Assembly: GCF_004152845.1 (NCBI RefSeq)
Contig: NZ_SEON01000008.1
Location: 124,001 to 188,000 of the forward strand
Source: Sphingobium fuliginis
GTDB lineage: Bacteria > Pseudomonadota > Alphaproteobacteria > Sphingomonadales > Sphingomonadaceae
Direction of reading: 5' to 3'
DNA length: 64,000 nucleotides
The notes beneath the pieces are model-generated. The model was not told the DNA's origin. It worked only from the letters and a program-made list of their open reading frames with translations, and did no database searches. Below are positions 1 to 21,351 of this stretch, one piece after another. Position 1 is the stretch's first letter. Each line of letters starts with the position of its first letter. A program made the translations under genes and the position numbers.

Positions 1-428
1 TGCGGCGGCTCGGAGAAATTCATTGGTCGCAGCGGACTCGAACTCAGAAACCAGGACAGGGCAACCATGAAGCCGGCTTGTTGGGTTTCGGCGGCTCGCG
101 TCGGATCGAATAGGGTGCGTCGCATGAACGCCAAGAAGAACATCTCGCTGCCCTTGCCCTTTTTCCCGCCGCCGCGCGCATCGGTAGTCAAACGCAACTT
201 GTCCTCAATCTCTTCGACCAGACCGATCCGCCGTGCTTCGGCAAGCGTGTTGCTGAACAATGTCGTGGTTGACTCGCCATCATCATCGCCGCCGCGGCCG
301 CTGAGCGACGGCGGCGTTGCCCAGGCCTCGATCCGGTCTTTGACTTCGCCATTCTCGCTGTCGAACAAGGCCGCGTAGATCGCGAACAATCGGCTTGGAA
401 CAGCTTGGGCAGTTGTAACTATACTCAT
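1..428 (-). CDS. Partial dpd-island gene (DpdG candidate), cut by window edge
   Basis: An open frame starts at the ATG at 428 and runs without a stop to base 1, so at least 142 codons are present and the 3' end lies outside the window. It begins MSIVTTAQAVPSRLF and contains a Gly/Lys stretch (RGGGKKGKG) near residue 90. Its ATG overlaps the stop of the DpdF-like helicase gene (ATGA), which makes translational coupling very likely. In known dpd clusters a gene of unknown function, DpdG, follows the helicases and is tied to restriction; I assign it by position only. I recognise no enzymatic motif in the visible part. Confidence 0.7.
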   Translation of the reverse strand, partial: MSIVTTAQAVPSRLFAIYAALFDSENGEVKDRIEAWATPPSLSGRGGDDDGESTTTLFSNTLAEARRIGLVEEIEDKLRLTTDARGGGKKGKGSEMFFLAFMRRTLFDPTRAAETQQAGFMVALSWFLSSSPLRPMNFSEPP

Positions 429-2920
429 TGCGCTACTCTTGCATTAAACTCGTCGAGCGTCAGCGTTCGACCACCAAATACATCTTTCAACCTGCGTCCA
501 TCCGGAGCCGGCTGGTCGATCGGTGCCAGGAAGATACGGGGATTGTCGGCGCGCGGCGCAAGGTTCTGCGGCTCCAGTATTTGCTTGTCACCGACCATTA
601 CAAGTTCGGGACCGCGCGGCAGGCGCGACAACGCAAGCGACGATAGATCACTGACGAAGAATGCGCACTTTTCCGCGAATTTGAGCACTCGACCCATGTC
701 GAACGGTTGCGGGCCCATCGTGATCAGTTTGGCGAGACGCGCTTGTGCCAAACGTTGCAGTGTGTCGCCGAGACGGCGCGACGCATTGCGGGCCAGGTCG
801 CCTGGATCGTAGCTAACCAGCAGCCGGAGATCGCGGTCGAGAAGGTTCGCGACTAGCGGATGAAGGTCCTCGGTCCAGGGTCCCCGCGGCTCGCCGACCG
901 CCACGCTATTGAGGCGGCACGTGTCGTCAGAACGGCATCGACTGCATCGGCTGCAGGTTCGTCCGACCCTGTTCGCGCCATAGAGCTCCTCAAGGATCGC
1001 GGCCGGACAGCGATCGTCGCGCAGATACTCGCGCATGAGGTCGAGATTACGCTTGGCGGCAAGCCAACCGACCTGGCGCACGGGTTCGACACGCGACCGC
1101 CAGAGCTCCAAGTCGAGATGGTGGTCGTCGATGATCTCGATCTCGAGCCAGTCCCCCTCCTGTTCGATCCGTGGATAGGGTGTGCCGAGTAACCGCAAAA
1201 TGCCGGCACGCGCCATCAGGGCGACGGTGCGCAAGTTCCAGTCGGTATTGGCATCGCCGAACATGTCAATGTCGTGTTCATCAGTGCCGGGCCGGCCATC
1301 AATCCGCACGGCAAAGCGCCCGTTACCAAGACTGGTCTTGCGGGCGAACATCGTGGACCAGCGATGGTAGCCGCGATCGATGCTGATGACCTGCTGGGCG
1401 TTGATGCGTTCGGCGATCGCCATGTCCTTGCCTGTCGGAACGATCAGTGAAAGCGCGGCCTTGCCGTCACGTCCGCCGCGCCCGACCTCTTGATAGAAGC
1501 GATCGAGCGTCTCGGGGACACAGGCATGGATCACGCTGCGGGCATGGCCATAATCGATGCCAAGCCCAAACGCCGAGGTTCCGACGACGATATCAAGTGC
1601 GCCGTCGCGCCATTGGGCGACAATCTCTTCGCGCTCGGCGCGGCCGGTTTTGCCGTGAAGCTTGCGCACCCGGCGAAATCCCGCCTCGATTAGTCGCGCA
1701 TACCAGGCGTTGGCGGCTGCAACTTCGGTGACATAAAGTACCGCCGGCCGGGGCACGTGATGAAGCGCCTCGAGAACCTGGGCAACGCGGTTGGCCTCGT
1801 TGGTTGACGGCGCGATCCAATAGTCCGGTTCGGGCCGCAGCTGGACCGCCGCAAGGCTTTCGAAATTGCTTTCAGCGCCGAACAGCGAGCGCAAGGTTTC
1901 GAGCGAGGAATCGGTAAGCGTCGCCGACAACATGATGGTGCGCAGCGCTTGGCCGGGGGGAGCCGCTGACAGCAGTTCGCGCCGCAGGCCGCTCAATTCC
2001 TGGAACTCGGTCCGGAAGCCCGTGCCCCATTGGTCGACGAGATGAGCTTCGTCGATCACCAGCGCGCGCAGCAGGCCGGCTTCTGCCGCGCGGCGCAAGG
2101 GATCGCGCAGACGATTGCACGCTGCCTCGGGCGACACAAAGCACAGGCCCTGGGTGCCGTCGGCGATCCGCTCGGCAATGATATTGTTTTGGACGTCGTT
2201 GCCGCCCTGGAACGCGAGCGGTGGCGATAGACCGCAAACATCGACCGCTTCGCGTTCGTGATTGACCCCGAGCGCGACAGTCGGAACAATCACCAGGGTG
2301 ACGCCGCGGTTTTCCGCTTGATCGGCCCCGACAAAGCCGACCGTCTGGATCAACTGGAAGATCATGCTCTTGCCCTCGCCGGTGGGCAAAGCAACGACGA
2401 GGCTACCGCCGGCGGGGGTCGAGAGTGCGGCACGCACGGCGGCGCGCTGCCCGCGGCTACGATAGGAGGTCCGCCCAACAGCGGCGAGCAATGGATCCCC
2501 TTGGCAGTCGGCGCTATTGAACTCGCGGCGCGTTGTCTCAGAAGCGGCAAAAGCATCGACGCTGTCGCTAATGCCGGAGAGCCATGTCGGTTTCCAAGGC
2601 TGGAGCGTTACCAAACGCGCTTCACCGGTGGCGGTGCTGCGCAGTCCAACGGCATCCCATCCGGCAAACCCGTCGAAGCGCAGGTGCGACACGGGCACCG
2701 CAGGCGACACCATCGCGCCTCGTCGAACATGCTCGTGGCTCATTGCCTGACGGAGCAGGACTGCCAGATCGAGACCACTCGCCTGGCGAGCAGGGTCGAC
2801 CAGCGCTTTGCGCAACCGTTCGATCGCAGGTGACCGGGCTCGCCAGTCTGCCCCGCTATCGGTGCGGTCGAGCAAATGGCCCAGTGCTACAAAGGCATCA
2901 TGGCCATCCCGGTCAGCCAT
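425..2920 (-). CDS. dpdF: DpdF-like RecQ-type DNA helicase
   Basis: This 831-residue superfamily 2 helicase has a Walker A motif (ALPTGEGKSM), a DEAH box (VIDEAHLVDQWG), motif III (MLSATL) and a RecQ-like motif VI (QEVGRGGRDG). A C-terminal cysteine cluster (GRTCSRCSRCRSDDTC) probably binds zinc, as in RecQ proteins. I chose the ATG at 2920, which overlaps the DpdE stop by 8 nt; an ATG 31 codons upstream would overlap far more and adds a low-complexity tail. In dpd islands this helicase is thought to act with DpdE and neighbours in restricting DNA that lacks the deazaguanine mark. The family is clear; the restriction role is inferred from context. Confidence 0.85.
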   Translation of the reverse strand: MADRDGHDAFVALGHLLDRTDSGADWRARSPAIERLRKALVDPARQASGLDLAVLLRQAMSHEHVRRGAMVSPAVPVSHLRFDGFAGWDAVGLRSTATGEARLVTLQPWKPTWLSGISDSVDAFAASETTRREFNSADCQGDPLLAAVGRTSYRSRGQRAAVRAALSTPAGGSLVVALPTGEGKSMIFQLIQTVGFVGADQAENRGVTLVIVPTVALGVNHEREAVDVCGLSPPLAFQGGNDVQNNIIAERIADGTQGLCFVSPEAACNRLRDPLRRAAEAGLLRALVIDEAHLVDQWGTGFRTEFQELSGLRRELLSAAPPGQALRTIMLSATLTDSSLETLRSLFGAESNFESLAAVQLRPEPDYWIAPSTNEANRVAQVLEALHHVPRPAVLYVTEVAAANAWYARLIEAGFRRVRKLHGKTGRAEREEIVAQWRDGALDIVVGTSAFGLGIDYGHARSVIHACVPETLDRFYQEVGRGGRDGKAALSLIVPTGKDMAIAERINAQQVISIDRGYHRWSTMFARKTSLGNGRFAVRIDGRPGTDEHDIDMFGDANTDWNLRTVALMARAGILRLLGTPYPRIEQEGDWLEIEIIDDHHLDLELWRSRVEPVRQVGWLAAKRNLDLMREYLRDDRCPAAILEELYGANRVGRTCSRCSRCRSDDTCRLNSVAVGEPRGPWTEDLHPLVANLLDRDLRLLVSYDPGDLARNASRRLGDTLQRLAQARLAKLITMGPQPFDMGRVLKFAEKCAFFVSDLSSLALSRLPRGPELVMVGDKQILEPQNLAPRADNPRIFLAPIDQPAPDGRRLKDVFGGRTLTLDEFNARVAQ

Positions 2921-5900
2921 GAACGGTCCTGGTGATTGCCGGACCGAGGATGAAACATCCCATGGCGTCGAGCCGGATCGTGGGGGATTCGATGCTGGGT
3001 AGGATCGATTCAATTAGCGCGATATCCTCGCGGGCCATCGTATCACCGGCCGATTGGCGGCGCTGGAGGCGGTTCCGGCGTCGCTGCAGGTCGCTTGCGG
3101 CAAGGGTCGTGGCCGCGGTGATCGCGTCAAGTACCGCGGGTTGCTCGGATAGGGTTTGCCGTGCACCGTCCCGCACGCGGCGGCATACCACTGGGAACAC
3201 AGAGGGATCGATGTAGTCGGCGAGGATGTGCGGCCGACTCCCTAGATTGATGTCGGCGCTCGGGCCTTTCCCATGGCTGTTATAGGGTTTGGACAGCACG
3301 GCGAGCAGGGCAGGATCGGTGACCGCCTCGCCATTGATGTCGAGGAACAAGGTCTGCTCGCTTTGCGCGAAATAGCGCTGTGCGCGGCGTGACGCGGCAA
3401 GCTCGGCGCGTGACGGCGCGAGCAGATCGGCCATGTCGAGACTGGGCTCGATCGTAAAGCAGAGCTTGAACCCGATCCACGCATCGCCCTGCCAGTCTGA
3501 AACGGGGCGATAAGTAACAAAGGCGGTCCCGCGATCGTCCCAGCGGGTGAATCGCGTCAGCACGTCGATAAGCGGCGTGCCCGGACGCAGCAAAGTTACA
3601 GCGGTGCGTCGTGTCGCGATCCGGCGTTTCCAACTCAGCGGCTGGCTATCGTCCAGTTCGAGTTGCTGCTGCCACGGCAAGCGCGGGATCAAGGTCTCTT
3701 TGGTGATGGCGAGTTTGAACGGATCTTCTACCGGCCAGGCGAAGGGCCGCTTCTTGAGTTGTAGCGTGCCAATCAGCCATTGGTCGACGCCGGCTTCGAG
3801 GGCCGCCTCATCGGCTTCGGCGTCGTCTAACGCCTGGATGAAGGTCTCGACGGGTTCCTCCGCGAGCGCGATCCGATCAAGCGCATATTGTTCGTCCTGC
3901 GACTTGCGTTCGTCGGCGATCTGGCTGCGGATTTCCTCGGCCAACGAGACCAATGCATGGGGTCCGGTCAACAGTAGCGCATGGAGTGCGCGGGTCTCGA
4001 AATCCTCAAGGAGGAACTGCACATCGCTTATCGAGCGGTGGAAGATCGAAAGACCATCAGCAAGCAAGGTTTGCCACGCGGCAAAGGGGCTTTCGTCTTC
4101 GTCCGAGGGCAGCAGGATCCGGTGACGGATGATCCCCTGCCGTCGGCCATAGCGATCGAGACGGCCGATACGTTGTTCGATCCGAGCAGCGCTCATCGGG
4201 AGATCGAGATGCACGATCGCGTCGGCGAAGCTGAGGTTGAGGCCCTCTTCGGCCGAACGATCAACGATGAGAACGGCTGTATCGGGCGTTTGCGCGAACG
4301 CCCCGAGGCCGTCTTCGTCATCCTCCCCTGCTTTGCCGCCTTCGACGAGCAGCAGACACGGCGTGTCATTGAGCCCGTTTTCGAGGGCTTCGTGAAACGC
4401 GACCGCCAGCGCAGTCGTGGTCGCGAACACCACGATTTTGGGATGATCGACGTCGGTCCGCAGCGTCTTGATCAGTCGCCGCACGCTTTCGACCATGGTC
4501 TCGATGCGATCGGCATCGTCATACTCCTCTGCCTGGTCGCGCAGCGCATTGAGGATTTCGGCTTCGCCGGCAAAGATCGGCGTGGCGGCTGCCAGCCAGG
4601 CACGAAACGCGTCGGCACCTTCGGACAACGCGCCCAGCAGGTCACGGTAGCGCGTTGAGAGCAGTGGCGCCCCGTCACCGCCATCGACCAGTGAATCGAC
4701 GGCGGCCGATCGCCAATCCTCGAGCGTGCCGAGCAGCACCGCCAGGTCGTCGCTCGGATCGCCTTCGGTGCGCACGTGGGACATGGCGCCGCCATCGGGG
4801 CCGCGCGGTCGAAACTCCCATCCCTGGGCATCAGCCCGGCGTGAACGGATCAGGCGCTGGTGAATGCGATAGCTGTCGGCGACGTGCTCTTTGAGCGCGC
4901 CGCACAGGTCGACAAGTCGGTCGGGAGCTTCTCGCGTCGCAGCAATCATCTGTGGCGCCAGGTCCTGGACGACGGGATCGTCGGGAAAGCTGCGGACAAG
5001 CTCGGCACCGCGCTGGCGCAGAACGATCCCGGAAGCGTCGGGATCTAGACTGAGCAGCAAGCGGCCGATCGCACGGCGCTGCTCGAGTTTCAGGCGGAAT
5101 CCGTCGAGGTCGTCGAGCGGATGGGTCAGCGGATCGAGCAGGTTGAGCAGCGCTAACAACCGGGCCTCTTCCCCCAGCGGCGGCGTGGCGGACAGCAGCA
5201 GCAGCACTGGCACATCGCGGGCGAGTTCACGCAGCCGTGCCGCCGAAGCAGCCAGCGGGCCATCGTCAAGTCCGACCAGGTGATGCGCTTCATCGATTAC
5301 CAGAACATCGGGTGTCCGCGAGATCTGCGCGATATCGGCATGCGAGCAGCATTCGAAGGGTTCGCCGAACTGATCGAGGCGGAGCTTATCGGAAAGTTCA
5401 TGCCGCCACTGCTCACATAGCGCCGACGGGGTAGCGATGAGCACTTCCGTATCGGGATTGTCGATAAGATGCTGTCGGATGATCAGGCCGGCCTCGATCG
5501 TTTTGCCAAGCCCTACCTCATCAGCTAGCAGATAACGCTGCACAGGGTCGCTTAAGACACGGCGAACGGCAGCAACTTGGTGTGGTACGAAGTCGATCCC
5601 GGCTGACAGCAGTGCGGTCAGGCCTTGTGCAGCGCTGGTCAACCCGCGCAGCGGCGTCAACGCCGCTTGGCGCCGGTCGTGAAGAAACTGGCTTTCAGCG
5701 CCGCCCGCCGCCAGCATCTCAGCTGGATCTTCGGGGGCATTCCATGGGCGGACGAACAAATCGAGTTCACTGAAATCATCCTGCTTTCCGTTGGGAAAGC
5801 GGATTTCATAGGTGACGAGCCCGTTTTCATGCTGGAGATAATCCCTGACGCGACCAACCCGCATGTGATCGCCATCAAGGACATAGGCTCGGGTTTGCGG

Positions 5901-6047
5901 ACTTAGGTAAGCACGTCCTATCTCAGAAGCATAGCATTCGATCGTTTCTCTTCGATTGAGCGAGTAGAAAACAGAGATGGAGCAGCAACCATCAGTCGCC
6001 GCTTCTAATTTCCCGACACCCTTGTGCCCAGGTAGCCCTACTAACAT
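2913..6047 (-). CDS. dpdE: DpdE-like SNF2-family helicase
   Basis: This protein of about 1044 residues is a SNF2/HepA-type DNA translocase. It has Walker A (ADEVGLGKTIEAG), a DEAH box (VIDEAHHLVGLD), motif III (LLLSATPP) and motif VI (EQRIGRLDRYGRRQ). DpdE is required for the restriction-like phenotype of the Salmonella dpd island. The start is uncertain: the ATG at 6047 has no well-spaced Shine-Dalgarno, and the recognisable protein begins near residue 44, so a shorter product (for example from the ATG at 5864) is possible. A 100-nt gap separates it from queC, the only real gap in this operon; its stop overlaps the dpdF start. Confidence 0.85.
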   Translation of the reverse strand: MLVGLPGHKGVGKLEAATDGCCSISVFYSLNRRETIECYASEIGRAYLSPQTRAYVLDGDHMRVGRVRDYLQHENGLVTYEIRFPNGKQDDFSELDLFVRPWNAPEDPAEMLAAGGAESQFLHDRRQAALTPLRGLTSAAQGLTALLSAGIDFVPHQVAAVRRVLSDPVQRYLLADEVGLGKTIEAGLIIRQHLIDNPDTEVLIATPSALCEQWRHELSDKLRLDQFGEPFECCSHADIAQISRTPDVLVIDEAHHLVGLDDGPLAASAARLRELARDVPVLLLLSATPPLGEEARLLALLNLLDPLTHPLDDLDGFRLKLEQRRAIGRLLLSLDPDASGIVLRQRGAELVRSFPDDPVVQDLAPQMIAATREAPDRLVDLCGALKEHVADSYRIHQRLIRSRRADAQGWEFRPRGPDGGAMSHVRTEGDPSDDLAVLLGTLEDWRSAAVDSLVDGGDGAPLLSTRYRDLLGALSEGADAFRAWLAAATPIFAGEAEILNALRDQAEEYDDADRIETMVESVRRLIKTLRTDVDHPKIVVFATTTALAVAFHEALENGLNDTPCLLLVEGGKAGEDDEDGLGAFAQTPDTAVLIVDRSAEEGLNLSFADAIVHLDLPMSAARIEQRIGRLDRYGRRQGIIRHRILLPSDEDESPFAAWQTLLADGLSIFHRSISDVQFLLEDFETRALHALLLTGPHALVSLAEEIRSQIADERKSQDEQYALDRIALAEEPVETFIQALDDAEADEAALEAGVDQWLIGTLQLKKRPFAWPVEDPFKLAITKETLIPRLPWQQQLELDDSQPLSWKRRIATRRTAVTLLRPGTPLIDVLTRFTRWDDRGTAFVTYRPVSDWQGDAWIGFKLCFTIEPSLDMADLLAPSRAELAASRRAQRYFAQSEQTLFLDINGEAVTDPALLAVLSKPYNSHGKGPSADINLGSRPHILADYIDPSVFPVVCRRVRDGARQTLSEQPAVLDAITAATTLAASDLQRRRNRLQRRQSAGDTMAREDIALIESILPSIESPTIRLDAMGCFILGPAITRTVHG

Positions 6048-6147: not shown

Positions 6148-6861
6148 CTAAGTGTCCAATCTGGCGGAAAATTCCTGCCAACCAGCCCGCCGTAATTCGC
6201 AAGCCGGGCAGTGGCCGCAGCCCGCACCCCACTCATGCGTCGTTCCCCGATCGCCGAGATAGCAGGTGTGCGATTCTACACGCACAAGATTGACCAAGTC
6301 CGGTCCACCCAGCGCGTGGGCAAGCGACCAAGTCGCCGCCTTGTCGATCCACATGAGCGGCGTATGAAGCACGAAACGCTGTTCCATGCCCAGGTTGAGA
6401 GCCACTTGGAGAGCCTTGATCGTATCATCGCGGCAATCCGGATACCCAGAGTAGTCGGTTTCGCAGACCCCTGTGACGATGTGCTTGATGCCGCGGCGAT
6501 ATGCGACCGCAGCCGCAAATGTAAGGAACAGCAGGTTTCGGCCAGGAACGAAGGTGTTCGGCAGACCGCTCGCTGCCATTGCAATCTCGACGCCGGTCGT
6601 GAGTGAAGTGTCGCTGATCTGCCCAAGCGCAGCGAGTGCGATCATGTGATCGGTCCCGAGCTTGGTTCGCCAGTCAGCCTGTAGCTCCATCATACCCGCG
6701 CGCAACCGGTCTCGGACTTCGAGTTCGACACGGTGGCGCTGGCCGTAGTCAAAGCCGATTGTTTCGACGTGGTTGAAGCGGTCGAGGGCCCAAGCCAAAC
6801 ACGTAGCGCTGTCCTGCCCGCCGGAGAACAAGACCAGTGCGCTGCCGTCTGCACTGCTCAT
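6148..6861 (-). CDS. queC: 7-cyano-7-deazaguanine (preQ0) synthase QueC
   Basis: QueC converts 7-carboxy-7-deazaguanine to preQ0 using ATP and ammonia. The 237-residue protein has the N-terminal PP-loop ([11 protein letters not shown], near residue 13) and the C-terminal zinc-binding cysteines ([11 protein letters not shown]). Its length matches the family. The ATG at 6861 overlaps the queD stop by 4 nt. It sits inside the dpd operon with queD and queE, so it probably supplies preQ0 for DNA as well as for tRNA queuosine. No folE was seen in the window, so the first pathway step must come from elsewhere or from the left of the window. Confidence 0.95.
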
Positions 6862-7232
6862 GCTACCACCTCCTCACCCCAGTAGGAACATGCCTCCCCG
6901 CTGCTGTCGCGATAGACAGTGACCTTGTGGAGGTTGCCGATCACCGGCGACAGTCGATTCCAGATCCACCGGCTAAGATTCTCCATGGTCGCCGGACCAA
7001 GGTCGTTGATCTCGTCCAGGAAGCGATGATCAAGAGCGTCGCGTGCGCCCTCCATCGTCCGCTGAAGTAGGCCCAGGTCCACGACCATGCCTGTCGTCGG
7101 GTCGGGCAGCCCCCTTACAAACACCTCCGCCCGATAGCTGTGGCCATGGATCCGCCGGCTGGTCTCGGTCTCGATCACGCGGTCGAGCGTATGGGCCGCG
7201 TCGAAGCGAAACTGCTTGCTCAGTTCGAACAT
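6858..7232 (-). CDS. queD: 6-carboxytetrahydropterin synthase QueD
   Basis: QueD makes 6-carboxy-5,6,7,8-tetrahydropterin, the second step of preQ0 synthesis. The 124-residue protein has the three zinc histidines expected of the fold (H14 in FDAAH; H29 and H31 in RIHGHSY). The position four residues before the HGH motif, which is the catalytic cysteine in E. coli QueD, is Ser25 here. A cysteine is present near the C terminus (GEACSYWG). Variants with Ser at this place may be a QueD subfamily, so function is likely but not certain. I chose the ATG at 7232, which overlaps the queE stop by one base (TGATG). Confidence 0.9.
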
Positions 7233-7864
7233 CAGCGAATTCCGATCATCTTGTGAGACTGGATGGAGAGGCGCCATTGTGGGTTTTCGGTGCAGAAGCC
7301 GATGGCGGCTTCGAGGTTGGCCGATGCCATCGGTGAATCCATGGGCTGAAGAAAAAAATGCTCGAATTCGAGGCCAGCAAAGTGCTCGGGCCTCGCCTCG
7401 GCCTGAGGATAAACCAGCTTCAGCTCATGACCCGTCCGCAGAACAAGTTCAGCCCGCCCTTTTGGGCTGACACAAATCCAATCGATCCCTTCGGGCGCGG
7501 GTTGCGTGCCGTTGGTCTCGACGCCGATCTGGAAACTACGCCCATGAAGCGCGGCAACGAGGGCGTCATCGACCTGCAAAAGAGGTTCCCCACCCGTCAA
7601 CACGACATACCGCCTGTGAGCGGGGCCAGCCCACTCTCGTTCGATTGCTGCCGCAAGCGCCTCCGCGTCAGCAAATCGCCCGCCGCCCATCCCGTCCATT
7701 CCGACGAAGTCAGTGTCGCAGAAATTGCAAGCGGCACCCGCCCGGTCCTCTTTGCGTCCCGACCAAAGGTTGCAGCCAGCGAAGCGGCAGAAGACCGCCG
7801 CGCGGCCGGACTGCGCCCCCTCCCCTTGAAGCGTTTTGAATATCTCCTTGACGGCGTAGGCCAT
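7232..7864 (-). CDS. queE: 7-carboxy-7-deazaguanine synthase QueE (radical SAM)
   Basis: QueE is the radical SAM enzyme that contracts carboxytetrahydropterin to 7-carboxy-7-deazaguanine. The 210-residue protein has the N-terminal substrate motif (FKTLQGEG), a cluster-binding motif with an expanded spacing (CRFAGCNLWSG followed by CNFCDTDF, the first cluster Cys and the CxxC pair being 14 residues apart), and the VVLTGGEPLLQ motif. The expanded CX14CX2C spacing is known in proteobacterial QueE proteins. The ATG at 7864 overlaps the preceding stop by one base; a TTG one codon upstream is also possible. It is co-transcribed with queD and queC. Confidence 0.95.
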   Translation of the reverse strand: MAYAVKEIFKTLQGEGAQSGRAAVFCRFAGCNLWSGRKEDRAGAACNFCDTDFVGMDGMGGGRFADAEALAAAIEREWAGPAHRRYVVLTGGEPLLQVDDALVAALHGRSFQIGVETNGTQPAPEGIDWICVSPKGRAELVLRTGHELKLVYPQAEARPEHFAGLEFEHFFLQPMDSPMASANLEAAIGFCTENPQWRLSIQSHKMIGIR

Positions 7865-8967
7865 CAAGCTCCCTCCGCTTGTTCGAACAGAGGTGTGGGG
7901 GCGATGCGCGCGCGCTTCCGTAGGTCCGCTTTCACGATCGAAACGAGATAGTGCTTCAGCAACGCGATATCGCGATTGACGTTCTGCAAGCTATTCCAAC
8001 GGCGAATCTCGCCGCCGATCTCCCACTCGCCGCCGGTCCAGGCCGTTCGTCCCTTCAGGCACTCGAGACCTTCACGGAAATCCTCCACCGACTTTGCGTC
8101 CATGCGAGCGGCAAGCACTTCCATAACATCGCCCATCGCCTGGATGCCCGCCCCATGGAGAAGGCGCGAGGTAGCGGGCTTCTGCCCGTGCCACGCTTCG
8201 GGGAACACCTTCTTCACGGCCTCGAAGAAGTTCGAGACCAGCCGAACACACCGATCGCGACCGCGTGGCGTGTCGATGAGTTCGCGCATCACCCCATTGG
8301 TCAGCGATTCCATGATAATCTTTTGCACGACGGTGTCGGCGATAATGCCGTCCGGCTGGGTATGCTGCTTGATGTAGCCCTGCAGCGCTGTGTGCTCAAA
8401 GTTCAGACGAGCAGTTAAGTCGGCGGCAACCGACCTGCGGCTCAGCCGCGGGGGCAGATCATTGACCGACGGCAGGAGCTCGTAAATGAGCGACTTCGGC
8501 AACGGTTTGGTGTTGTTTATCAGAACGAACTGCCGCCGGAGTTCAGCTTCGTCGCGGCAAATAAGGGCCGAGACGAAGACCTGGAAATCCCGATCGACCT
8601 CCGACAGAGCGGTGAGACGTTGCTGGCCGTCAACCACAAGGCCGGGGACACCTTGGCTCATGTCGATCGTCAGGCGTACCGTCCCGTTCCCGAGGTCCTC
8701 GACCTTCGTTTGTTCGGTGAAAGCCACCACGATGGGGTTTGGGAGCACCGCGTCAGGCTTTTCGAGATAGTCCCGGATTTCACGGATATGCGCCGCGACC
8801 TGCGGCCGCTGGAAGCCGCTCAGTTCACCCTGGGCATCGCGACCGATACGATCGATCAATGCAAAGCGCAAGACGTCAGCCGCTCGGGCCGCGAACGTCA
8901 GCACGGTGTGCTCGCTGCTTTGCTTTGCCTGGACTGCGAAGAAGGAAAGAGAGTCAGTCGACGGCAC
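7864..8967 (-). CDS. Second DpdB/DndB-like DGQHR-domain protein
   Basis: This 367-residue protein has the DGQHR family signature (VVDGQQRLTAL, near residue 110) that ParB/DndB-like proteins share. A second family region (ADVLRFALIDR, then LSGFQRPQV) lies in the N-terminal part. It starts with GTG at 8967, overlapping the dpdA stop by 14 nt, and ends one base into queE. It is a paralogue of the gene at 10240-11361 on the other side of dpdA: both share the DGQQR core, the FVLINNTKPLP/FILVNKSKKLP stretch and a C-terminal ARMDAK/FRADGIA region. DpdB assists DpdA in placing preQ0 in DNA; what a second copy adds is unknown. Confidence 0.85.
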   Translation of the reverse strand: MPSTDSLSFFAVQAKQSSEHTVLTFAARAADVLRFALIDRIGRDAQGELSGFQRPQVAAHIREIRDYLEKPDAVLPNPIVVAFTEQTKVEDLGNGTVRLTIDMSQGVPGLVVDGQQRLTALSEVDRDFQVFVSALICRDEAELRRQFVLINNTKPLPKSLIYELLPSVNDLPPRLSRRSVAADLTARLNFEHTALQGYIKQHTQPDGIIADTVVQKIIMESLTNGVMRELIDTPRGRDRCVRLVSNFFEAVKKVFPEAWHGQKPATSRLLHGAGIQAMGDVMEVLAARMDAKSVEDFREGLECLKGRTAWTGGEWEIGGEIRRWNSLQNVNRDIALLKHYLVSIVKADLRKRARIAPTPLFEQAEGA

Positions 8968-10243
8968 GCTTTAGATCCAATCGTTCAATGTGGTCCTGAT
9001 AGACAGCGAGGTTATGGATTCCCCGCCGCTTGTTGCGGTTGCTACCGCGGAAGATGATCACGTCGATCGCAGCGTCCCGACAGATCTTGCAGGAGCATTG
9101 CTTCCACGGCTGCTCGGCGAGGGTCGCGCGGTAACGCTGGGCAAGCCGTGTTAACGATACGCTGCCCTTGCAGTCCTCGTAGGGCTTCTCCTCTACGAGA
9201 GGAGCGCTGTAGACGAGGACATTGTGCAACGTGTCTTCGAGTTCCGCTTCGCCCCGGTCGAAAGCCCGCAACGAGTCCAGCGCCAGAGCCTCGAGGCGAA
9301 TGAGTTCTTCCGCCCGGAACATGCCCTTCTTCACGCCCCGCTGTAATTTTGGATTCTCGATCGCCTGCGGCACCCGGATCGAAGTGAAGTAGCGCAGGCC
9401 CAGGCCCTCGCCGGGCAGATAATAGTTTTGCTTGGCGTCCTTGAAAGCACGTATCAACGGAGAAGTTGTATCGAAACTGGCAATATCATAGCCGTGGAAG
9501 CTATCGATATCGTCCGCCTTCGCGAAGCCTAGGATATGCAGGCGGGTGGCCGAAGGCACGGCTGCTCGAATTGCCTCTAGGCAGAGTTTGATCTCCGGCG
9601 ATTTGAGCGGCACCATGCCACCTAGCGCTAGGTAATCGTAGCCCATTGCGACAAGGCGCCTAGCTGCTTCTGCCATGCTTCCAGGAGACCATCCCTGAAT
9701 CACGCCAAGCGGGGTGAAGCCAGCATCGATTGCCCTCGCCTCGCGAAAGAAGGCATCCGCGTTCTCAAGGGTGATATCGAACCGGGTCTTGGCATGATCG
9801 GAGCCACCCTCGCGCGCCTTCCCGGCCGGATCGAAATCGAAAATGATATGGTCGACGGAGCAGCCGTGCGTGAAGCCGCACTCATCATAAAACTCAACCA
9901 TTTCAGCCGGCGAATAGGGTGGTCGCTCTTCCTGAACATAGGTGAATGCGCCGCAGTCACCGAATATATCGAGATGGGCAAACTCTGGCTTATCTAGGCG
10001 CAAAAATTTCCGAACGCCGACCAGATGAAAACGCCGAGCCTGGCTCGCTGTGTACTTCCCCTTCACGCGATGATCGCCCACGATGCCACGGGACACGAGA
10101 ACCCCGTCATATGGCGCATAACCCAGGATCTCATGGGGATATGCGTCATCCCAATAGGGTTGACGCTCGGCTGGGCTACGGTCGGCGATAAAGTCGAACG
10201 CTGGGTCAACATAGTCCAGGCTGTCGGCGAAGATAAACTTCAT
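8954..10243 (-). CDS. dpdA: DNA transglycosylase DpdA (TGT-like)
   Basis: DpdA is a homologue of tRNA-guanine transglycosylase that exchanges guanine in DNA for preQ0. The 429-residue protein has a TGT-like active-site region (FGDCGAFTY near residue 95, corresponding to the base-binding Asp/Gly loop), an LGGMVPLK strand, a second conserved Asp (ASFDTTSPL, near residue 260, candidate nucleophile), and a C-terminal zinc site (CSCKIC with a following His). The C-terminal part is family-specific and lacks the tRNA-binding extension of other TGTs. Its ATG at 10243 overlaps the dpdB stop (ATGA). The two flanking DGQHR genes and the preQ0 genes downstream identify the island. Confidence 0.93.
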   Translation of the reverse strand: MKFIFADSLDYVDPAFDFIADRSPAERQPYWDDAYPHEILGYAPYDGVLVSRGIVGDHRVKGKYTASQARRFHLVGVRKFLRLDKPEFAHLDIFGDCGAFTYVQEERPPYSPAEMVEFYDECGFTHGCSVDHIIFDFDPAGKAREGGSDHAKTRFDITLENADAFFREARAIDAGFTPLGVIQGWSPGSMAEAARRLVAMGYDYLALGGMVPLKSPEIKLCLEAIRAAVPSATRLHILGFAKADDIDSFHGYDIASFDTTSPLIRAFKDAKQNYYLPGEGLGLRYFTSIRVPQAIENPKLQRGVKKGMFRAEELIRLEALALDSLRAFDRGEAELEDTLHNVLVYSAPLVEEKPYEDCKGSVSLTRLAQRYRATLAEQPWKQCSCKICRDAAIDVIIFRGSNRNKRRGIHNLAVYQDHIERLDLKRAVD

Positions 10244-11361
10244 GCCGGCATCCTCGCCAATTCCCGCTCCATCCGGATGAGATGCTCGCTCAGTTTGTTG
10301 ATATGCTGCGGTGTGGACTGCAATTCATTCCACGCAAGGCCGAGGCCCTCCCAGCGCCCTGCAGTCCAGCGGCATTGCGGCGCAAGGCGCCCGAGGATGT
10401 CCCGCACAACGGACGCCTTGTCAGCAATGCCGTCGGCGCGAAACATGATCATGTCCATCAAGGCCCCCATTGCCCTGATTCCCACGGAGTGCATGAGACG
10501 ACTCTCTTTTGGTGGCTTACCCCATGCATCGGGGAAGGTGTCCCGAACCGCCGTCCAGAACGTGATAAGCGTTTCGTACATGGCGGTTGTGTCGTTGCCG
10601 TCACCATTCTGCTTGAACTGGCCCAAAGCGCCGGCGGTCGTGCGCAGGCTTGCCTTCATCGCCTCGATCAGAGCGTTATCGCTCACGATCCCTGTGCCAT
10701 TCTTGGGATCGGATTCCCGCTTGATGAGGCCATGGAACGGCGACTTCGGATCGCTGTTCAACGCATTGCAGAGCTCGCTCGGGAGTTGGCGTGCCGCGAG
10801 ATTTCTGGGAAGCTGAACCGAGACCTCTGGCAGCAATTCGTCGATGAGGCCCGTGGGCAGTTTCTTCGACTTATTGACGAGGATGAACTGCTCTCGTTGC
10901 GTGGCAACCTCATCCGAGACGAAGCCGATAACCGGCACGGCAATCTGCCGGTTCTTGGCCGCAGCCAGAGCAAGCGAGCGCTGTTGCCCATCGACAATCC
11001 AGGCCGCCCTGCTTCCCTCGGGATAAAGGGGGATGCTGAGTGTGCCAGCGTCGCCAACTTCGCACATGTTCCCCGGCGCACGACCACGCGCTGACGCGAA
11101 ATCGACTTCTCGCGAAAGGGCTAGGATGATGGCGTTGGGGAACAGGACCGGGCCGCTGTCGAGGAAGCTCGTGATTTCCTTGACGTGCTCGCGGATCTCG
11201 CGGCGTTGAAACCCCTTTAACTCCTGATCTTCTCGACGAACACGGCTGATATCCGCGATGCGGTCTATATCGGCGCCATAGAGGAAGAACGCGAAGATGC
11301 CCGTACCCTGACCCTGCTCCGCCTTCACGGCTCGAACTTTGAGATATTCGCGGGCAGTCAT
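10240..11361 (-). CDS. dpdB: DpdB-like DGQHR-domain protein
   Basis: This 373-residue protein carries the DGQHR/ParB-like signature (WIVDGQQRSLAL, near residue 126) with upstream REDQELKGFQRREI. DpdB, a relative of the DndB regulator of DNA phosphorothioation, works with DpdA in preQ0 insertion in Salmonella, where dpdA and dpdB together suffice for the base swap. It overlaps the upstream candidate dpdC and the downstream dpdA by 4 nt each (ATGA), so the three are translationally coupled. I call this copy dpdB because it directly precedes dpdA, but the paralogue at 7864-8967 is an equally good candidate for that role. Confidence 0.85.
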   Translation of the reverse strand: MTAREYLKVRAVKAEQGQGTGIFAFFLYGADIDRIADISRVRREDQELKGFQRREIREHVKEITSFLDSGPVLFPNAIILALSREVDFASARGRAPGNMCEVGDAGTLSIPLYPEGSRAAWIVDGQQRSLALAAAKNRQIAVPVIGFVSDEVATQREQFILVNKSKKLPTGLIDELLPEVSVQLPRNLAARQLPSELCNALNSDPKSPFHGLIKRESDPKNGTGIVSDNALIEAMKASLRTTAGALGQFKQNGDGNDTTAMYETLITFWTAVRDTFPDAWGKPPKESRLMHSVGIRAMGALMDMIMFRADGIADKASVVRDILGRLAPQCRWTAGRWEGLGLAWNELQSTPQHINKLSEHLIRMERELARMPA

Positions 11362-12278
11362 GCTCGCTCACTCCGAATGATGCGAGCCAGGCCGGCATAG
11401 CGGCCTTGCTCGCATGCGACATTGAATTCACCCCGAAGTCGGCGAAGAGACATCCCCTTGGCGTCGTTCCAATGGGCCCGCAGGATTTCGAGGATCGCAG
11501 TATCTTCCAGGCGCAAGCGCGCTGGACGTTCGGGTTTTCGCCAAGAGGCGACGGCATTCCGCACCTCGCGCGCATGCTCCGCCAGCGAACGGGTGTCGTT
11601 CGGCAATAAAATTACGTCCGCGAAATGCCGCGCGGCGCGGCTAGAGAAGTCGCTTATTGTGCCGGGGATCGAACTGTCTGGGCCGTCCAATCTCTCATCG
11701 TAAGGCATTACTGACGCGCGAAGGCCTGGGTTTATCCGGTCTAACGGAGCGCGCGTAAACAACCGGACGCGATCGCGAACCGCTTCGGGTAACGCCAACA
11801 TGTCGTCCGCGATCATCTCGATATAGGCGTCCGAGAGAGCCGCAAGAATAAGGCCCTTGGTATCTCGCAGAGCCTCAGGAAGGCTCGTCCCGAACGGCGA
11901 GACCTTGCTGAGCGCAGACCACCACTGTGGTGAGGAAAACGCCCCGCGCACTCTCGATGCTACACTATCGGCCGAGCCAGGTGCGATCGTGCAAGCATAG
12001 GGAGGCACCTTCGTCGCGGCGTCCACCAATCCAAGGCCAGCCGAAACGATAAGCAGACGCGCATCGAGCACGCCAGCGACACTCCGAGCCTCTTGGAAGC
12101 CTCTTCCGCCGTAGATCGCGGCAGGCAAATAGCACTCTTCCGCCGCCGCCAGTCGCTTTGCCCATTGCCCGACCACTTCCGGAAGCGATGCTGATTCCAG
12201 CGCACACACGCGGAGGTCGGGAGCGACCTCTTTTCGTTTCCGGTTCGTACAAGTGGTGATGATCACGGCCACAGCCAC
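11358..12278 (-). CDS. YaaA/DUF6884-like protein, DpdC candidate
   Basis: This is the first gene of the island: a 306-residue protein starting at a GTG (12278) with AAGGAGA seven bases upstream. The N-terminal half has ITTCTNRKR, a YGGRGFQEAR motif and VSAGLGLVD followed by PPYACTI, a pattern I associate with DUF6884 and the related YaaA/DUF328 fold. The C-terminal half has no motif I recognise. In Salmonella, DpdC converts preQ0 in DNA to the amido form. This gene is the only one here with the right position for that step, so the link to DpdC is an inference. It overlaps dpdB by 4 nt. Confidence 0.6.
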   Translation of the reverse strand: MAVAVIITTCTNRKRKEVAPDLRVCALESASLPEVVGQWAKRLAAAEECYLPAAIYGGRGFQEARSVAGVLDARLLIVSAGLGLVDAATKVPPYACTIAPGSADSVASRVRGAFSSPQWWSALSKVSPFGTSLPEALRDTKGLILAALSDAYIEMIADDMLALPEAVRDRVRLFTRAPLDRINPGLRASVMPYDERLDGPDSSIPGTISDFSSRAARHFADVILLPNDTRSLAEHAREVRNAVASWRKPERPARLRLEDTAILEILRAHWNDAKGMSLRRLRGEFNVACEQGRYAGLARIIRSERA

Positions 12279-12510
12279 GCGCGTCTCCTTCGCATTTATC
12301 GCTATATCAGCGAGGAGATCTTTTCCACATTTAATTCACCAGTCACTGCCGAATAAATGGCAATAAATGATGAACCTGCGGGGCAAATGAATATCTGTTT
12401 ATGGCCCTACATGGCCACAAAGGCGAGCATATAAGGTCGTTGCACCCGGTTAGGCGATGCCGTTTATGCGGCACGCCGCGCTGCGCATTGCCAGGCTCGG
12501 TGCTTCTCGA
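12279..12510. promoter_or_regulatory. Intergenic region before the dpd island with tandem AATAAATG repeats
   Basis: This AT-rich stretch of 232 bases separates the dpd operon from the T4SS operon and must hold the dpd promoter. AATAAATG occurs twice, at 12352-12359 and 12362-12369, exactly one helical turn apart. A palindromic TATCGCTATA-like element lies near 12299. These could be operator half-sites. No clear -35/-10 pair was assigned. Confidence 0.35.
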
Positions 12511-13395
12511 TCAGCGGCCGCGCGATCGTTGCAGCGGCGGCCGTTCCTTGCCTACGTCCTGCCGCTTGCGGCCGGATGGCTCAACTGTCCGGACGGATGT
12601 GTCCCGCACTTTCGCGGCCTGAAACTGCCGCCCCGCCTGCAGATGCGTTTGTACCTTGTCGTTCGCGACCTTCATGACCCTGGCGACCGCTTCCGGATTG
12701 TCGAACAGCGCCGTGCGCACCACTGCCTCGATCACACGGAGCTGGCTCTGGGCCGCGCGCGAATTCTTCTCACGGGCTTGTGCTGAAGACGGTCGCCTCA
12801 ATCCTTCCGGCGCCTGACGGCGGCTGCGATCGGGTTCGCGCGAGGCCGGCGCAGTGACGGTGGGCGCGATGCTGTTGCGGCTAGCCTCGCGCCGGATGCG
12901 GTCCAGCTCCTGCAAATCCCGTTCGCTCGGCCGATATCCCCGTACTTCCAAACCCTGGCGACCGGCTTCGAGCCACGCGGCCCTTCGGAACGTCTCGCTG
13001 CCCGTGACATGAACGTGCGACCACCCGCGGTAGCGAGCGATGGCAACGAGATCGCGCACGACCTCCTCACTTTCGCTCGAGGTGACAAGACGCCGTCCTT
13101 GGTCCCGAAATGCAGGCTCCTTCGCCTGGGCCGTCGTGAAGTAAGCCGGTTCCCCCGACCATTTGCCGGTCGACGAAAAGTAGCGCTTTTGCAGGGGCTC
13201 CGGTATGTCGCCGGCAGAAATTGATCGTGGCTGAACCCCCGCCCGCTCCTTGCCTTTGTTAGAGGTGCCGGGATCCTTGGGAATGTCGTCACGCGTGTCT
13301 TTCCCAGAACGCGGTACGGACTGACCTTCACCAATCGAAATGGCATTGGCGCGCTTCCTGGCGCCCCGCGAATTCTCGGGCTTCTCAGCGGACAT
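12511..13395 (-). CDS. Stand-alone LPD7-domain protein (relaxase C-terminal type)
   Basis: This 294-residue protein contains the LPD7 domain usually found at the C terminus of conjugative relaxases (KRYFSSTGKWSG, YFTTAQAKEPAFRDQG, VTSSESEEVVRDLVAIA, then the WSHVHVTGS segment). The N terminus is basic and has no relaxase catalytic Tyr/His motif. I chose the ATG at 13395 because it follows AGGAAAGGA and overlaps the virD4 stop by 11 nt; longer starts add an Arg-rich shadow. As the last gene of the T4SS operon it probably helps DNA processing or relaxase recruitment. It may be a split-off relaxase domain; the relaxase itself is not in the window. Confidence 0.75.
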   Translation of the reverse strand: MSAEKPENSRGARKRANAISIGEGQSVPRSGKDTRDDIPKDPGTSNKGKERAGVQPRSISAGDIPEPLQKRYFSSTGKWSGEPAYFTTAQAKEPAFRDQGRRLVTSSESEEVVRDLVAIARYRGWSHVHVTGSETFRRAAWLEAGRQGLEVRGYRPSERDLQELDRIRREASRNSIAPTVTAPASREPDRSRRQAPEGLRRPSSAQAREKNSRAAQSQLRVIEAVVRTALFDNPEAVARVMKVANDKVQTHLQAGRQFQAAKVRDTSVRTVEPSGRKRQDVGKERPPLQRSRGR

Positions 13396-15349
13396 GAGCT
13401 GTCCTTTCCTGGATAATGGATGTGGATGGCTGCCCGACCGGTGGCAAAAGTGCCCGCTCGACCATCGCCGACACGAAGGCGATCGCGGCGGCCTCGTCGC
13501 CCGGGGGCGGCAGGTCGGCCAGGTCGCCCAGAACCAGCATGTCATCCGTGATCTTGGCCGCACCTGCCAGCTCGGCGTCGGTCATTTCCCGCATCGCAAT
13601 TTCCTCCTGTATGGTCCCGCCCGAGCTTGTCACCGGTTGCTGTGGGGCGCCGCTCAGACCGGATGTGCCAGCGCCCCACAGCGCTGAAGCCGACGTAGGT
13701 GGGGAAAGCATTGCCGCGATTGGACGGGCGGACAGCACAGGCGGAGCAACCACCCGTCGCGTGAAGCGTGGCATCCGGTAGTAGGCGATCTTGCGCCCTC
13801 GAATTGGTGGGATGCCGGCGCGAAGGAGCAGGAGTTCGTTCTTCGGCAGCTGCATGAGCTCTTGTGGCAGCAGGAGCGCGCGGCGCTGATCAGATTCCGA
13901 GATGCTCCGGTTCGCCAGCAGCCCGTGGATGGTACGGCTGCGGGATTTCACGTTCATCGTGAAAAAACCGAGCCGTTCGGAAAGTTCGTTCGCGACCTTT
14001 AGCTCCTTGGGCGTGAAGACCACCTCAAGGCCGCAATTGGCGATGATCTCGTCGGTGACATCGGGACCATAGATTGCGCGAAGCTGGGATCGGCTCTGAA
14101 TGACCGGGACCAGGCGTAGGCCATAGCCGGCGACATAGGAGAAGCCGCTCGCAATCACCGAGGCTTTGCCGAGCCTGGCGAACTCGTCGAGCAGGACCAG
14201 GACCGGGACATTGGTCGCGCCCTCAGGAAGATCGCGGGTGTTGAGATCCACGAGTTGCTGTAGGAACAGGCTGTAGATCGGCGCGATGCGGTCGATATTG
14301 TCGGGCGACACGCCAAGGTAAATCGACATACGCCGACGCCGCACCTCGCGCAGGTCGAAGTCGCTTTCCGAGGTGGCGGCATCCACCATGGGGTTGAGCC
14401 AGAGATTGAGCCGCGCGGTGATGGTCTGCTTGATCCCGGAAAAGGTGTTGTCCGAGGCCGAGGTGAAATCCTGGATCGCGGACACGCAGGCTTGGCTGAG
14501 GCGCTGGCCCACCCTGCGGGCTTCCTGAAGCGTTGCGGGAAGGTCGCTCTTGGGATCCCCGCTCGTGAGGCGGCGGTATATCTCGCCGATGGTGAAGGGC
14601 AGGCCCGGGTTGGATGCGACCAGGGCGCCGACGCCGACAAAGGCCGCTCGCGCGGCCTCCGCCCAGAAGGGATCGGATCGCTCGGGCGCGGGGAAAAGCA
14701 TGCCCGCGATCTTCTGCAGCTCGTTGACGACCTCTATGTCATCAGTCCGTCTGATGTGCGCCAGGGGGTTGTACCGCGCCGTCCGCCCCTCCGCGTCGAG
14801 CGGATCGAACAGATGCACGGCCTGGCCGGCCCGTGCACGATACCCCGCGCTTGCGCCCCAGTTCTCCCGTTTCACGTCGAGCACGACCACCGAATCTGGC
14901 CAGGTCAGCAGATTGGGAATGACGACGCCCACGCCCTTGCCCGCTCGTGTGGGTGCCTCGAGCAGAACATGCTCGCTCCCGCCGAATATCAGGAAACGTC
15001 CAGCCTTGCGGCCGACAACGATGCCGGACGCGGCGCGAAGGCCCTCCCGCCGGATCTCGCCTTCGCGCGCAAACCGGGCGGTGCCGTGCAATGCCGGCCC
15101 GCGGCGCAGAATCCCAATCGCGAGGAGCCCGACCACAACTGCGCCCGCCAGCGCCCCGCGCTTTAGCCAAAGAATAAGCAGTGGGTCCGCCCGATAGTAC
15201 CACAGCCATGCGGGCAAGGCCGTGAGGTCGGTGTGAGAGCCGATCTGGCCCAGCCCAAAGAGGGCAACCAGCACGGCGATGGCGCAGCACAATAAGGTGC
15301 CGCCGGCAACGGACAGGCCGATCATCCAGAAGCTACGCTGCACCGGCAT
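13385..15349 (-). CDS. virD4: Type IV secretion coupling protein VirD4/TraG
   Basis: VirD4 is the inner-membrane ATPase that couples the relaxosome to the secretion channel. The 654-residue protein has two N-terminal membrane segments (about residues 8-30 and 55-80), a Walker A motif (EAPTRAGKGVGV) and a Walker B (VPVLVLLDEFARLG). The HGTARFA motif after the membrane region is typical of the family. The chosen ATG (15349) overlaps virB11 by 17 nt. The C-terminal tail is Pro/Ser-rich and ends in an acidic segment. Its place next to virB11 completes the channel set. Confidence 0.93.
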   Translation of the reverse strand: MPVQRSFWMIGLSVAGGTLLCCAIAVLVALFGLGQIGSHTDLTALPAWLWYYRADPLLILWLKRGALAGAVVVGLLAIGILRRGPALHGTARFAREGEIRREGLRAASGIVVGRKAGRFLIFGGSEHVLLEAPTRAGKGVGVVIPNLLTWPDSVVVLDVKRENWGASAGYRARAGQAVHLFDPLDAEGRTARYNPLAHIRRTDDIEVVNELQKIAGMLFPAPERSDPFWAEAARAAFVGVGALVASNPGLPFTIGEIYRRLTSGDPKSDLPATLQEARRVGQRLSQACVSAIQDFTSASDNTFSGIKQTITARLNLWLNPMVDAATSESDFDLREVRRRRMSIYLGVSPDNIDRIAPIYSLFLQQLVDLNTRDLPEGATNVPVLVLLDEFARLGKASVIASGFSYVAGYGLRLVPVIQSRSQLRAIYGPDVTDEIIANCGLEVVFTPKELKVANELSERLGFFTMNVKSRSRTIHGLLANRSISESDQRRALLLPQELMQLPKNELLLLRAGIPPIRGRKIAYYRMPRFTRRVVAPPVLSARPIAAMLSPPTSASALWGAGTSGLSGAPQQPVTSSGGTIQEEIAMREMTDAELAGAAKITDDMLVLGDLADLPPPGDEAAAIAFVSAMVERALLPPVGQPSTSIIQERTAHVR

Positions 15350-16337: not shown

Positions 16338-16340
16338 GGC

Positions 16341-17567: not shown

Positions 17568-17570
17568 GGC

Positions 17571-19451: not shown

Positions 19452-19463
19452 GATGATGCCTCA

Positions 19464-20408: not shown

Positions 20409-20425
20409 CGAGAATTCGCCAGACG

Positions 20426-21348: not shown

Positions 21349-21351
21349 AGC

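What the first reader, a model, noticed from the sequence alone, without database searches (positions are those of the whole stretch)
7864..11361. Two DpdB-like paralogues flank DpdA
Both 367- and 373-residue proteins have the DGQQR core and matching flanking motifs, with dpdA between them. Described dpd sets have one DpdB that may be dispensable. Two could give sequence choice, a heteromer with DpdA, or one modification regulator and one modification partner.
Basis: partly seen in the sequence, partly recalled or inferred. Interest (0 to 1): 0.65.

Follow-up and report, generated by a model that had tools for sequence, protein, structure and literature searches.

The report
Twin DpdB ATPases flanking DpdA
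A bacterial DNA-marking defence system carries two anciently separated versions of its helper protein DpdB, one on each side of the base-exchange enzyme gene, and in its relatives the two are nearly always kept together, so each probably has its own job.

Summary
Both proteins are full-length DpdB (32% identity over 370 columns, both above NCBIfam's DpdB cut-off), with dpdA between them, in a full dpd cluster (A-K plus queC/D/E; dpdI weak). It is not a local oddity: of the 80 dpdA loci kept from a genome scan (best 80 of 190 matches), 76 have both copies intact around dpdA. Upstream and downstream copies form two clades (100/100 each; one downstream copy falls outside). The single DpdB of E. 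coli/Enterobacter lies outside both. Both copies keep the DGQQR, QR and FxxxN motifs (77 of 77 rows each) and are as constrained as dpdA. One copy is broken or missing in 3 of 80. Extra dpdB copies are counted in print (n=801, GATOR-GC); my searches found no description of the two-clade arrangement. I also found an array of AATAACTGC-type elements about 33 bp apart upstream of dpdC in most dual loci, not seen at three enterobacterial single-DpdB loci or three DpdB-less loci. Best reading: two non-redundant ParB-like NTPase subunits serving DpdA, probably as a heteromer. The main rival, that one copy is a DndB-like autorepressor, is not excluded.

The parts
11358..12278 (-). dpdC (GTG start), first gene of the operon
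   Evidence: PDLC02815 E=5.8e-101
10240..11361 (-). dpdB-up, 373 aa, between dpdC and dpdA
   Evidence: NF041060 461.2 bits, cut-off 300; up clade of the trees
8954..10243 (-). dpdA, TGT-like base-exchange enzyme, 429 aa
   Evidence: NF041059 557.1 bits, cut-off 200
7864..8967 (-). dpdB-down, 367 aa, between dpdA and queE
   Evidence: NF041060 384.3 bits, cut-off 300; down clade of the trees
7232..7867 (-). queE
   Evidence: TIGR04508 346 bits, cut-off 240
6858..7277 (-). queD
   Evidence: PF01242 105.5 bits; below the TIGR03367 cut-off (72.7 of 89.25)
6148..6861 (-). queC
   Evidence: TIGR00364 202.2 bits, cut-off 150.3
2913..6047 (-). dpdE, SNF2-like helicase
   Evidence: NF041062 939 bits, cut-off 500
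425..3013 (-). dpdF, RecQ-like helicase
   Evidence: NF041063 817.6 bits, cut-off 550
12325..12337 (-). operator-like element nearest dpdC, 35 bp from the second one
   Evidence: matrix score 11.1, placed; the pair pattern, written from this site, occurs once in the genome
12360..12372 (-). second operator-like element
   Evidence: matrix score 9.6, placed
12350..12362 (-). weaker element overlapping the second
   Evidence: matrix score 5.8, placed

Best explanation
The two genes encode two non-redundant ParB/Srx-fold NTPase subunits of the Dpd modification machine. Shown here: they are ancient paralogues in fixed positions, nearly always kept together in the loci sampled, both under strong purifying selection and both with the conserved DGQHR-family motifs intact. 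Inferred: they act together, most likely as a heteromer in place of a homodimer, with DpdB-down closer to DpdA and DpdB-up acting through DpdB-down. Both bind and hydrolyse NTP to let DpdA exchange a guanine in DNA for preQ0, after which DpdC converts it. Ancestrally one DpdB probably did this (the C-A-B order of enterobacteria); an up-type copy was gained between dpdC and dpdA and the downstream copy then diverged.
For: Co-retention: 76 of 80 kept loci have both copies intact; 1 has a split downstream copy, 1 lacks the upstream copy (remnant of residues 260-370), 1 is rearranged with dpdA truncated and the downstream copy gone, 1 has neither. Two clades in a 64-row tree: up 26 of 26 rows at 100/100; a down clade at 100/100 with 26 of 27 rows in the downstream position; in a 93-row tree with distant outgroups up has 99 and the down clade 93. 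Motifs DGQQR, G.QR and FxxxN in 77 of 77 rows of each copy. Rates: slope against dpdA 0.97 (up) and 1.01 (down) over 38 loci, dpdC 1.96; dN/dS 0.03-0.08 (up) and 0.01-0.17 (down) in the 9 of 12 pairs where dS could be computed, some of them saturated and not independent. Partial correlation of tree distances over 38 loci: up-down 0.61, down-A 0.71, up-A -0.23, up-C 0.36, down-C -0.05, A-C 0.35; 5-95% of 200 two-thirds subsets: up-down 0.52-0.69, down-A 0.60-0.81. ParB fold of the down model: best Z 8.6; up model best Z 7.9. Overlapping genes C/B/A/B/queE. DpdB as the ATPase of dPreQ0 insertion: PMC12839542, passages.
Against: No binding, ATPase or modification data were found for a dual system. 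The rate correlation is exploratory and could reflect shared history; up and dpdA do not correlate once the others are held fixed. Complementary loss of conserved residues, expected if one ancestral job had been split, was looked for and not found (both-lost columns 5 against 2.9 expected, and 20 against 12.7). The array upstream of dpdC could mean that one copy is a repressor. L076 keeps dpdC, dpdA and the downstream copy after losing most of the upstream one. The 80 loci are the best matches to this DpdA, are partly close relatives, and a few come from the same genome. Foldseek gave no PDB match at E <= 0.001 for the up model, and Z near 8 can mean only a common arrangement (note).
Confidence: 0.5

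Rival explanations
1. One copy is the modification ATPase and the other is a DndB-like, NTP-dependent autorepressor that binds the 33-bp-spaced array upstream of dpdC.
For: AATAACTGC-type elements upstream of dpdC: 81 of 114 held-out tests at p<=0.05 (6 splits of 38 loci), pairs 28-36 bp apart 45 against a shuffled mean of 1.15 and maximum of 4 in 20 shuffles; 63 of 88 dual loci against 34 of 4076 control tiles. Beyond dpdC, dpdB, dpdA and a que family, and apart from frames overlapping those genes, no family was in more than 13 of 38 loci (families not domain-searched). DndB binds palindromes in its own promoter (PMC4507180, passages) and is called an ATP-dependent repressor (PMC12704722, passages). 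Third DpdB copies are transcribed divergently from dpdC in L134 and L136, and a DpdB diverges from a dpdC-like gene in L184, with elements between them.
Against: Nothing shows that a DpdB binds the array; an unlinked host regulator, or one shorter than 80 aa or outside the fetched flanks, could. By the cited passage the DpdB family serves modification, so regulation is not its only job. The L181 dual locus and the 7 DpdB genes without dpdA scanned show no pair. 25 of 88 dual loci show no pair at this threshold.
Confidence: 0.27
2. The copies are alternative specificity subunits: each homodimer pairs with DpdA and directs it to a different sequence context.
For: Two stable clades with many clade-specific fixed residues (30 columns above 90% in up and under 20% in down, and 30 the reverse).
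Against: Both copies evolve at dpdA's rate, without the fast diversification that I would expect of specificity subunits. The near-fixed pairing in 76 of 80 loci fits joint action better than free choice. Not tested directly.
Confidence: 0.15
3. Plain redundancy or gene dosage: the second copy is a recent or dispensable duplicate.
For: Both belong to one family with the same motifs.
Against: Separate clades, 32% identity, purifying selection on both, one copy broken or missing in only 3 of 80 loci.
Confidence: 0.05

Closest known systems
DpdB of the enterobacterial Dpd system (dpdC-dpdA-dpdB; S. Montevideo/E. coli type)
   Same: Same family (NF041060), same motifs, next to dpdA, in a dpd cluster
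   Different: One copy, downstream of dpdA; its sequence lies outside both clades; no operator-like pair found upstream of its dpdC in the three loci scanned
Additional dpdB copies counted by GATOR-GC (PMC11888242)
   Same: More than one dpdB per island (n=801 additional copies)
   Different: A count only in the section read: no positions, clades or function given; its supplementary tables were not available to me
DndB of phosphorothioate systems (PF14072)
   Same: DGQHR-domain family, ParB-like, sits in a DNA-modification operon
   Different: Different operon and chemistry; DndB represses its own operon, and its deletion raises phosphorothioate about two-fold (PMC4507180, passages)
ParB/KorB/Noc NTP-dependent DNA clamps
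   Same: Shared NTPase fold (best Z 8.6); clamp behaviour of these is recalled, from no call
   Different: Sequence identity 10-17% in the structural alignments; clamp behaviour of DpdB is untested

Membership tests
DpdB (NCBIfam NF041060 / PADLOC PDLC02811) | Whole-protein score above the curated cut-off | tested here: met
   384.3 and 461.2 bits, cut-off 300
DpdB (NCBIfam NF041060 / PADLOC PDLC02811) | Encoded next to dpdA in a dpd cluster | tested here: met
DpdB (NCBIfam NF041060 / PADLOC PDLC02811) | DGQ[H/Q]R, QR pair and FxxxN motifs (motif list from PMC4619093, passages) | tested here: met
   77 of 77 rows of each copy from the kept loci, L091 left out; all read DGQQR, none DGQHR
DpdB (NCBIfam NF041060 / PADLOC PDLC02811) | ATPase activity needed for preQ0 insertion | not testable with these tools
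   biochemical; stated in PMC12839542, passages
DndB (PF14072) | Domain match above Pfam gathering score | tested here: met
   59.0 and 51.5 bits, cut-off 29.1
DndB (PF14072) | Located in a dnd phosphorothioation operon | tested here: not met
   the neighbours are dpdA, dpdC and que genes
DndB (PF14072) | Sequence-specific repressor of its own operon | tested here: inconclusive
   operator-like array present, its reader unknown
ParB/sulfiredoxin fold | NTPase-domain fold | tested here: met
   down model: 7bm8 Z 8.6, rmsd 2.8, 99 residues, and the 20 best rows are ParB-like or sulfiredoxin; up model weaker: best VIA Z 7.9, Foldseek to 7bm8 prob 1.00 but E 0.026

The most novel reading that the evidence does not exclude
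The two DpdBs form a heteromeric ParB-like NTP-switched DNA clamp that does both jobs: loaded with DpdA it drives base exchange, and through the 33-bp-spaced array, used like a parS/KorB operator, it senses and limits its own operon. A DNA-modification ATPase would then double as a clamp-type autorepressor, with the two copies supplying the asymmetry.
Probability: 0.17. Interest if true: 0.72.

Novelty: new variant of a known kind. Interest (0 to 1): 0.5.

Why it matters
In my judgement what DpdB does is among the least understood steps of base-exchange DNA modification. A subtype in which two DpdBs have stayed distinct yet together over a long time turns that question into simple tests (single deletions, pull-down, gel shift on the array). 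It also warns against carrying results from the one-DpdB enterobacterial system straight over to the two-DpdB loci found here in alpha-, beta- and gammaproteobacteria.

Tried and rejected
Complementary loss of residues (subfunctionalisation): at first sight each copy keeps residues that the other lost, but a count with seven generic DpdBs gave no deficit of both-lost columns: of 82 columns invariant in 7 of 7, 56 were kept in both, 11 in down only, 10 in up only, 5 in neither (2.9 expected); of 123 conserved in at least 6 of 7, 20 were lost in both (12.7 expected). Rejected.

Pseudo-enzyme idea (one copy catalytically dead): not supported at motif level, the core residues are kept in both.

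Genome samples gave few DpdBs. Class sample: none besides G000 of 385. Phylum sample: two besides G000 of 398, one dual (G664), one single (G732). A DpdA family search in 274 genomes of another class listed 132 with a match; only G732 scored above 40 bits, the rest (38.1 bits or less) I take for ordinary TGT. PDB sequence search with the DpdB profile gave only an apolipoprotein (E 0.0066, read as chance) and a DUF262 protein (E 0.3). A palindrome search upstream of dpdC gave no shared palindrome by eye in the loci printed; k-mers and a matrix did find an element. The first matrix drifted to a weak AT-rich motif and is not used for counts. DpdB scans of viral contigs gave one independent dual locus (L181) besides L139, and DpdBs without dpdA. 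BFVD search of the down model returned ParB-, DndB- and GmrSD-like viral proteins and added nothing on function.

Papers: searches for DpdB, dpd, dPreQ0, DGQHR, ParB/DndB, DpdC and 'two copies' were made; none of their listings points to a description of the two-copy arrangement, and the count in PMC11888242 is the only mention seen. Gedara 2023 and Thiaville 2016 are not held, so the statements on DpdB biochemistry come from passages of PMC12839542.

Full report
Observation. Two genes at 7864-8967 and 10240-11361, both on the - strand, flank dpdA at 8954-10243. The proteins align over their whole length, 32% identity over 370 columns, E = 1e-50, and both pass the curated DpdB cut-off. dpdC lies upstream and queE, queD, queC, dpdE and dpdF downstream. 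dpdG runs across the window's left edge and dpdH, a weak dpdI, dpdJ, dpdK and dpdD follow outside it. So this is a complete Dpd system with one additional dpdB. Neighbouring genes overlap by 4-14 nt from dpdC to queE (coordinates).

How common. A scan of the genome-contig collection with a DpdA profile gave 190 stretches that encode a relative, of which the best 80 were kept. The sample therefore leans towards DpdAs like this one, holds close relatives, and in a few cases two loci of one genome. In 76 of these 80 both DpdBs are intact and flank dpdA; L114 is counted although dpdC is not on its short contig. The four others: L076 has only a remnant of the upstream copy, L080 is rearranged with dpdA truncated and the downstream copy missing, L091 has the downstream copy split in two frames, and L104 (Acetobacter) has dpdC-dpdA without any dpdB. 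By record titles the hosts span Alpha-, Beta- and Gammaproteobacteria. Plasmid records of Azospirillum, Sinorhizobium, Agrobacterium, Skermanella and Caulobacter show the same order, as does an unverified faecal virome scaffold. In contrast 159 of 5,426 complete E. coli genomes hold the Enterobacter-type dpdA-dpdB stretch, and the one region read has a single dpdB, downstream of dpdA, as has the Enterobacter plasmid. Two further plasmid loci, Methylorubrum and another Acetobacter, have dpdC-dpdA and no dpdB.

Two lineages. In a 64-row tree without distant outgroups, all 26 upstream copies form one clade (100/100). The downstream copies form a second clade (100/100), with 26 of 27 downstream rows plus two third copies and two DpdBs from loci without dpdA in view. 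The exception is informative: dual locus L181 has an up-type copy upstream but a generic DpdB downstream, grouped with that of Nonomuraea. A 93-row tree with distant DGQHR proteins as outgroup gives the same two groups (up 99; down 93) and places the enterobacterial single DpdB with DpdBs lacking dpdA, beside the up clade at 83. The likely order is a single DpdB first, gain of the up-type copy between dpdC and dpdA, then divergence of the downstream copy; the rooting is not firm.

Neither copy decays. DGQQR, the QR pair and FxxxN are present in 77 of 77 rows of each copy (L091 left out). Distances of both copies scale with dpdA at 0.97 and 1.01, dpdC at 1.96, over 38 non-redundant loci. dN/dS is 0.03-0.08 for up and 0.01-0.17 for down in the 9 of 12 pairs with computable dS (dpdA 0.02-0.20, dpdC 0.08-0.39); several dS values exceed 1 and some pairs share a member. 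Predicted models are confident (mean pLDDT 87.7 for up, 92.8 for down). Roughly residues 13-170 of the down model match ParB and sulfiredoxin NTPase domains (Z up to 8.6); the up model does so more weakly (Z up to 7.9; no Foldseek PDB match at E <= 0.001). In the up model residues 41-51 are below pLDDT 50, while the down model has no such segment.

Do they work together? Partial correlations among tree distances of 38 loci give up-down 0.61, down-dpdA 0.71, up-dpdC 0.36, dpdA-dpdC 0.35, up-dpdA -0.23 and down-dpdC -0.05. The up-down link crosses the intervening dpdA gene, so it is not simple adjacency. This is a rate signal, not contact evidence. A test for complementary loss of ancestral residues was negative.

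An operator-like array. Upstream of dpdC in dual loci the 8-mer AATAACTG is the commonest: 22 copies in 16 of 38 loci, against at most 7 copies for any 8-mer in 30 approximate dinucleotide shuffles. A matrix trained on half of the loci finds the motif in held-out loci in 81 of 114 tests at p<=0.05 against dinucleotide shuffles (loci recur across six splits), and elements 28-36 bp apart occur 45 times against a shuffled mean of 1.15. A pair is found in 63 of 88 dual loci, which are the 38 training loci (one lacks nothing but is scored with the rest) and their closer relatives, a few fetched twice, and in 34 of 4,076 control tiles, which are mostly coding. It is found in 0 of 3 loci without DpdB and in 2 of 6 single-copy rows; those two are one rearranged locus fetched twice, and three of the other four are one enterobacterial lineage. 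In the window the elements are at 12325-12337 and 12360-12372; the pair pattern, written from this site, occurs once in the genome and its reversed control not at all. Upstream starts were set by the dpdC profile and are off in some loci (L134 shows its pair only on a wider scan). Among families shared by 8 or more of the 38 loci, none besides dpdC, dpdB, dpdA and a que family, and frames overlapping those genes, is in more than 13; they were not domain-searched and ORFs under 80 aa were not covered.

Interpretation. Two required, non-redundant DpdB subunits serving DpdA is the best-supported reading (0.5). A DndB-like repressor role for one copy is the main rival (0.27), because DndB does this in its own operon (PMC4507180, passages; PMC12704722, passages) and an array is there. 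The two need not exclude each other: the transcriptional repressor KorB is among the ParB-fold hits.

Prior art. The GATOR-GC preprint notes that dpdB has the most additional copies (n=801), from 2,335 unique windows (section 37 read). Searches listed no paper that I could see to describe two dpdB clades, the C-B-A-B order as a subtype, or the array. The library lacks most subscription papers, so this absence is weak evidence.

Noticed in passing
L134:4693-5775, L136:4716-5822 (-), L184:655-1758: A third DpdB, in the downstream clade, is transcribed divergently from dpdC in two Pseudomonas dual loci; in a viral-collection contig (L184) a DpdB of the same type diverges from a dpdC-like frame. 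Operator-like elements lie in the shared intergenic regions.
   Followed up: partly
L170:7995-9140, L171:7980-9086, L172:8001-9098, L185:5989-7119: DpdB genes with no dpdA within the fetched flanks (Euzebya, Nonomuraea, Variovorax, a viral-collection contig); in Variovorax a DUF6884-domain gene follows. L171 and L172, scored against NCBIfam, pass the DpdB cut-off.
   Followed up: partly
L033:5743-7149 (phage Mx4), L182:2779-4476, L183:1683-3356: Longer DpdBs without dpdA in view, in Myxococcus phage Mx4 and two viral-collection contigs; their open frames also score 26-28 bits with the DpdC profile, perhaps a fused DpdC-like part.
   Followed up: no
L031, L037, L104: dpdC-dpdA pairs with no dpdB and no que genes found by tblastn in the fetched stretch (Methylorubrum extorquens AM1 megaplasmid, two Acetobacter).
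   Followed up: partly
window 13385-25103: A type IV secretion/conjugation gene set (coupling protein, T2SSE-type ATPase, TrbI, VirB8, TrbL/VirB6, CagE/TrbE/VirB ATPase, SLT transglycosylase) lies just upstream of the dpd operon, so the cluster may sit on a conjugative element.
   Followed up: partly
window 12511-13563: LPD7-domain protein (PF18821, 75.8 bits) between the transfer genes and dpdC.
   Followed up: no
L027 (MT835580.1): An unverified 'Bacteriophage sp.' scaffold from human faecal samples carries dpdC-dpdB-dpdA-dpdB; it may be bacterial DNA.
   Followed up: no
queC of 36 dual loci: Tree distances of queC do not follow those of dpdB, dpdA or dpdC (raw correlations -0.08 to 0.10), as if the que genes were exchanged independently, or as if the profile caught other que copies.
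   Followed up: no
plasmid annotations, e.g. L034, L035, L038: The annotation writes the gene symbol as dbpB while naming the product DpdB, which could hide copies from a search by symbol.
   Followed up: no
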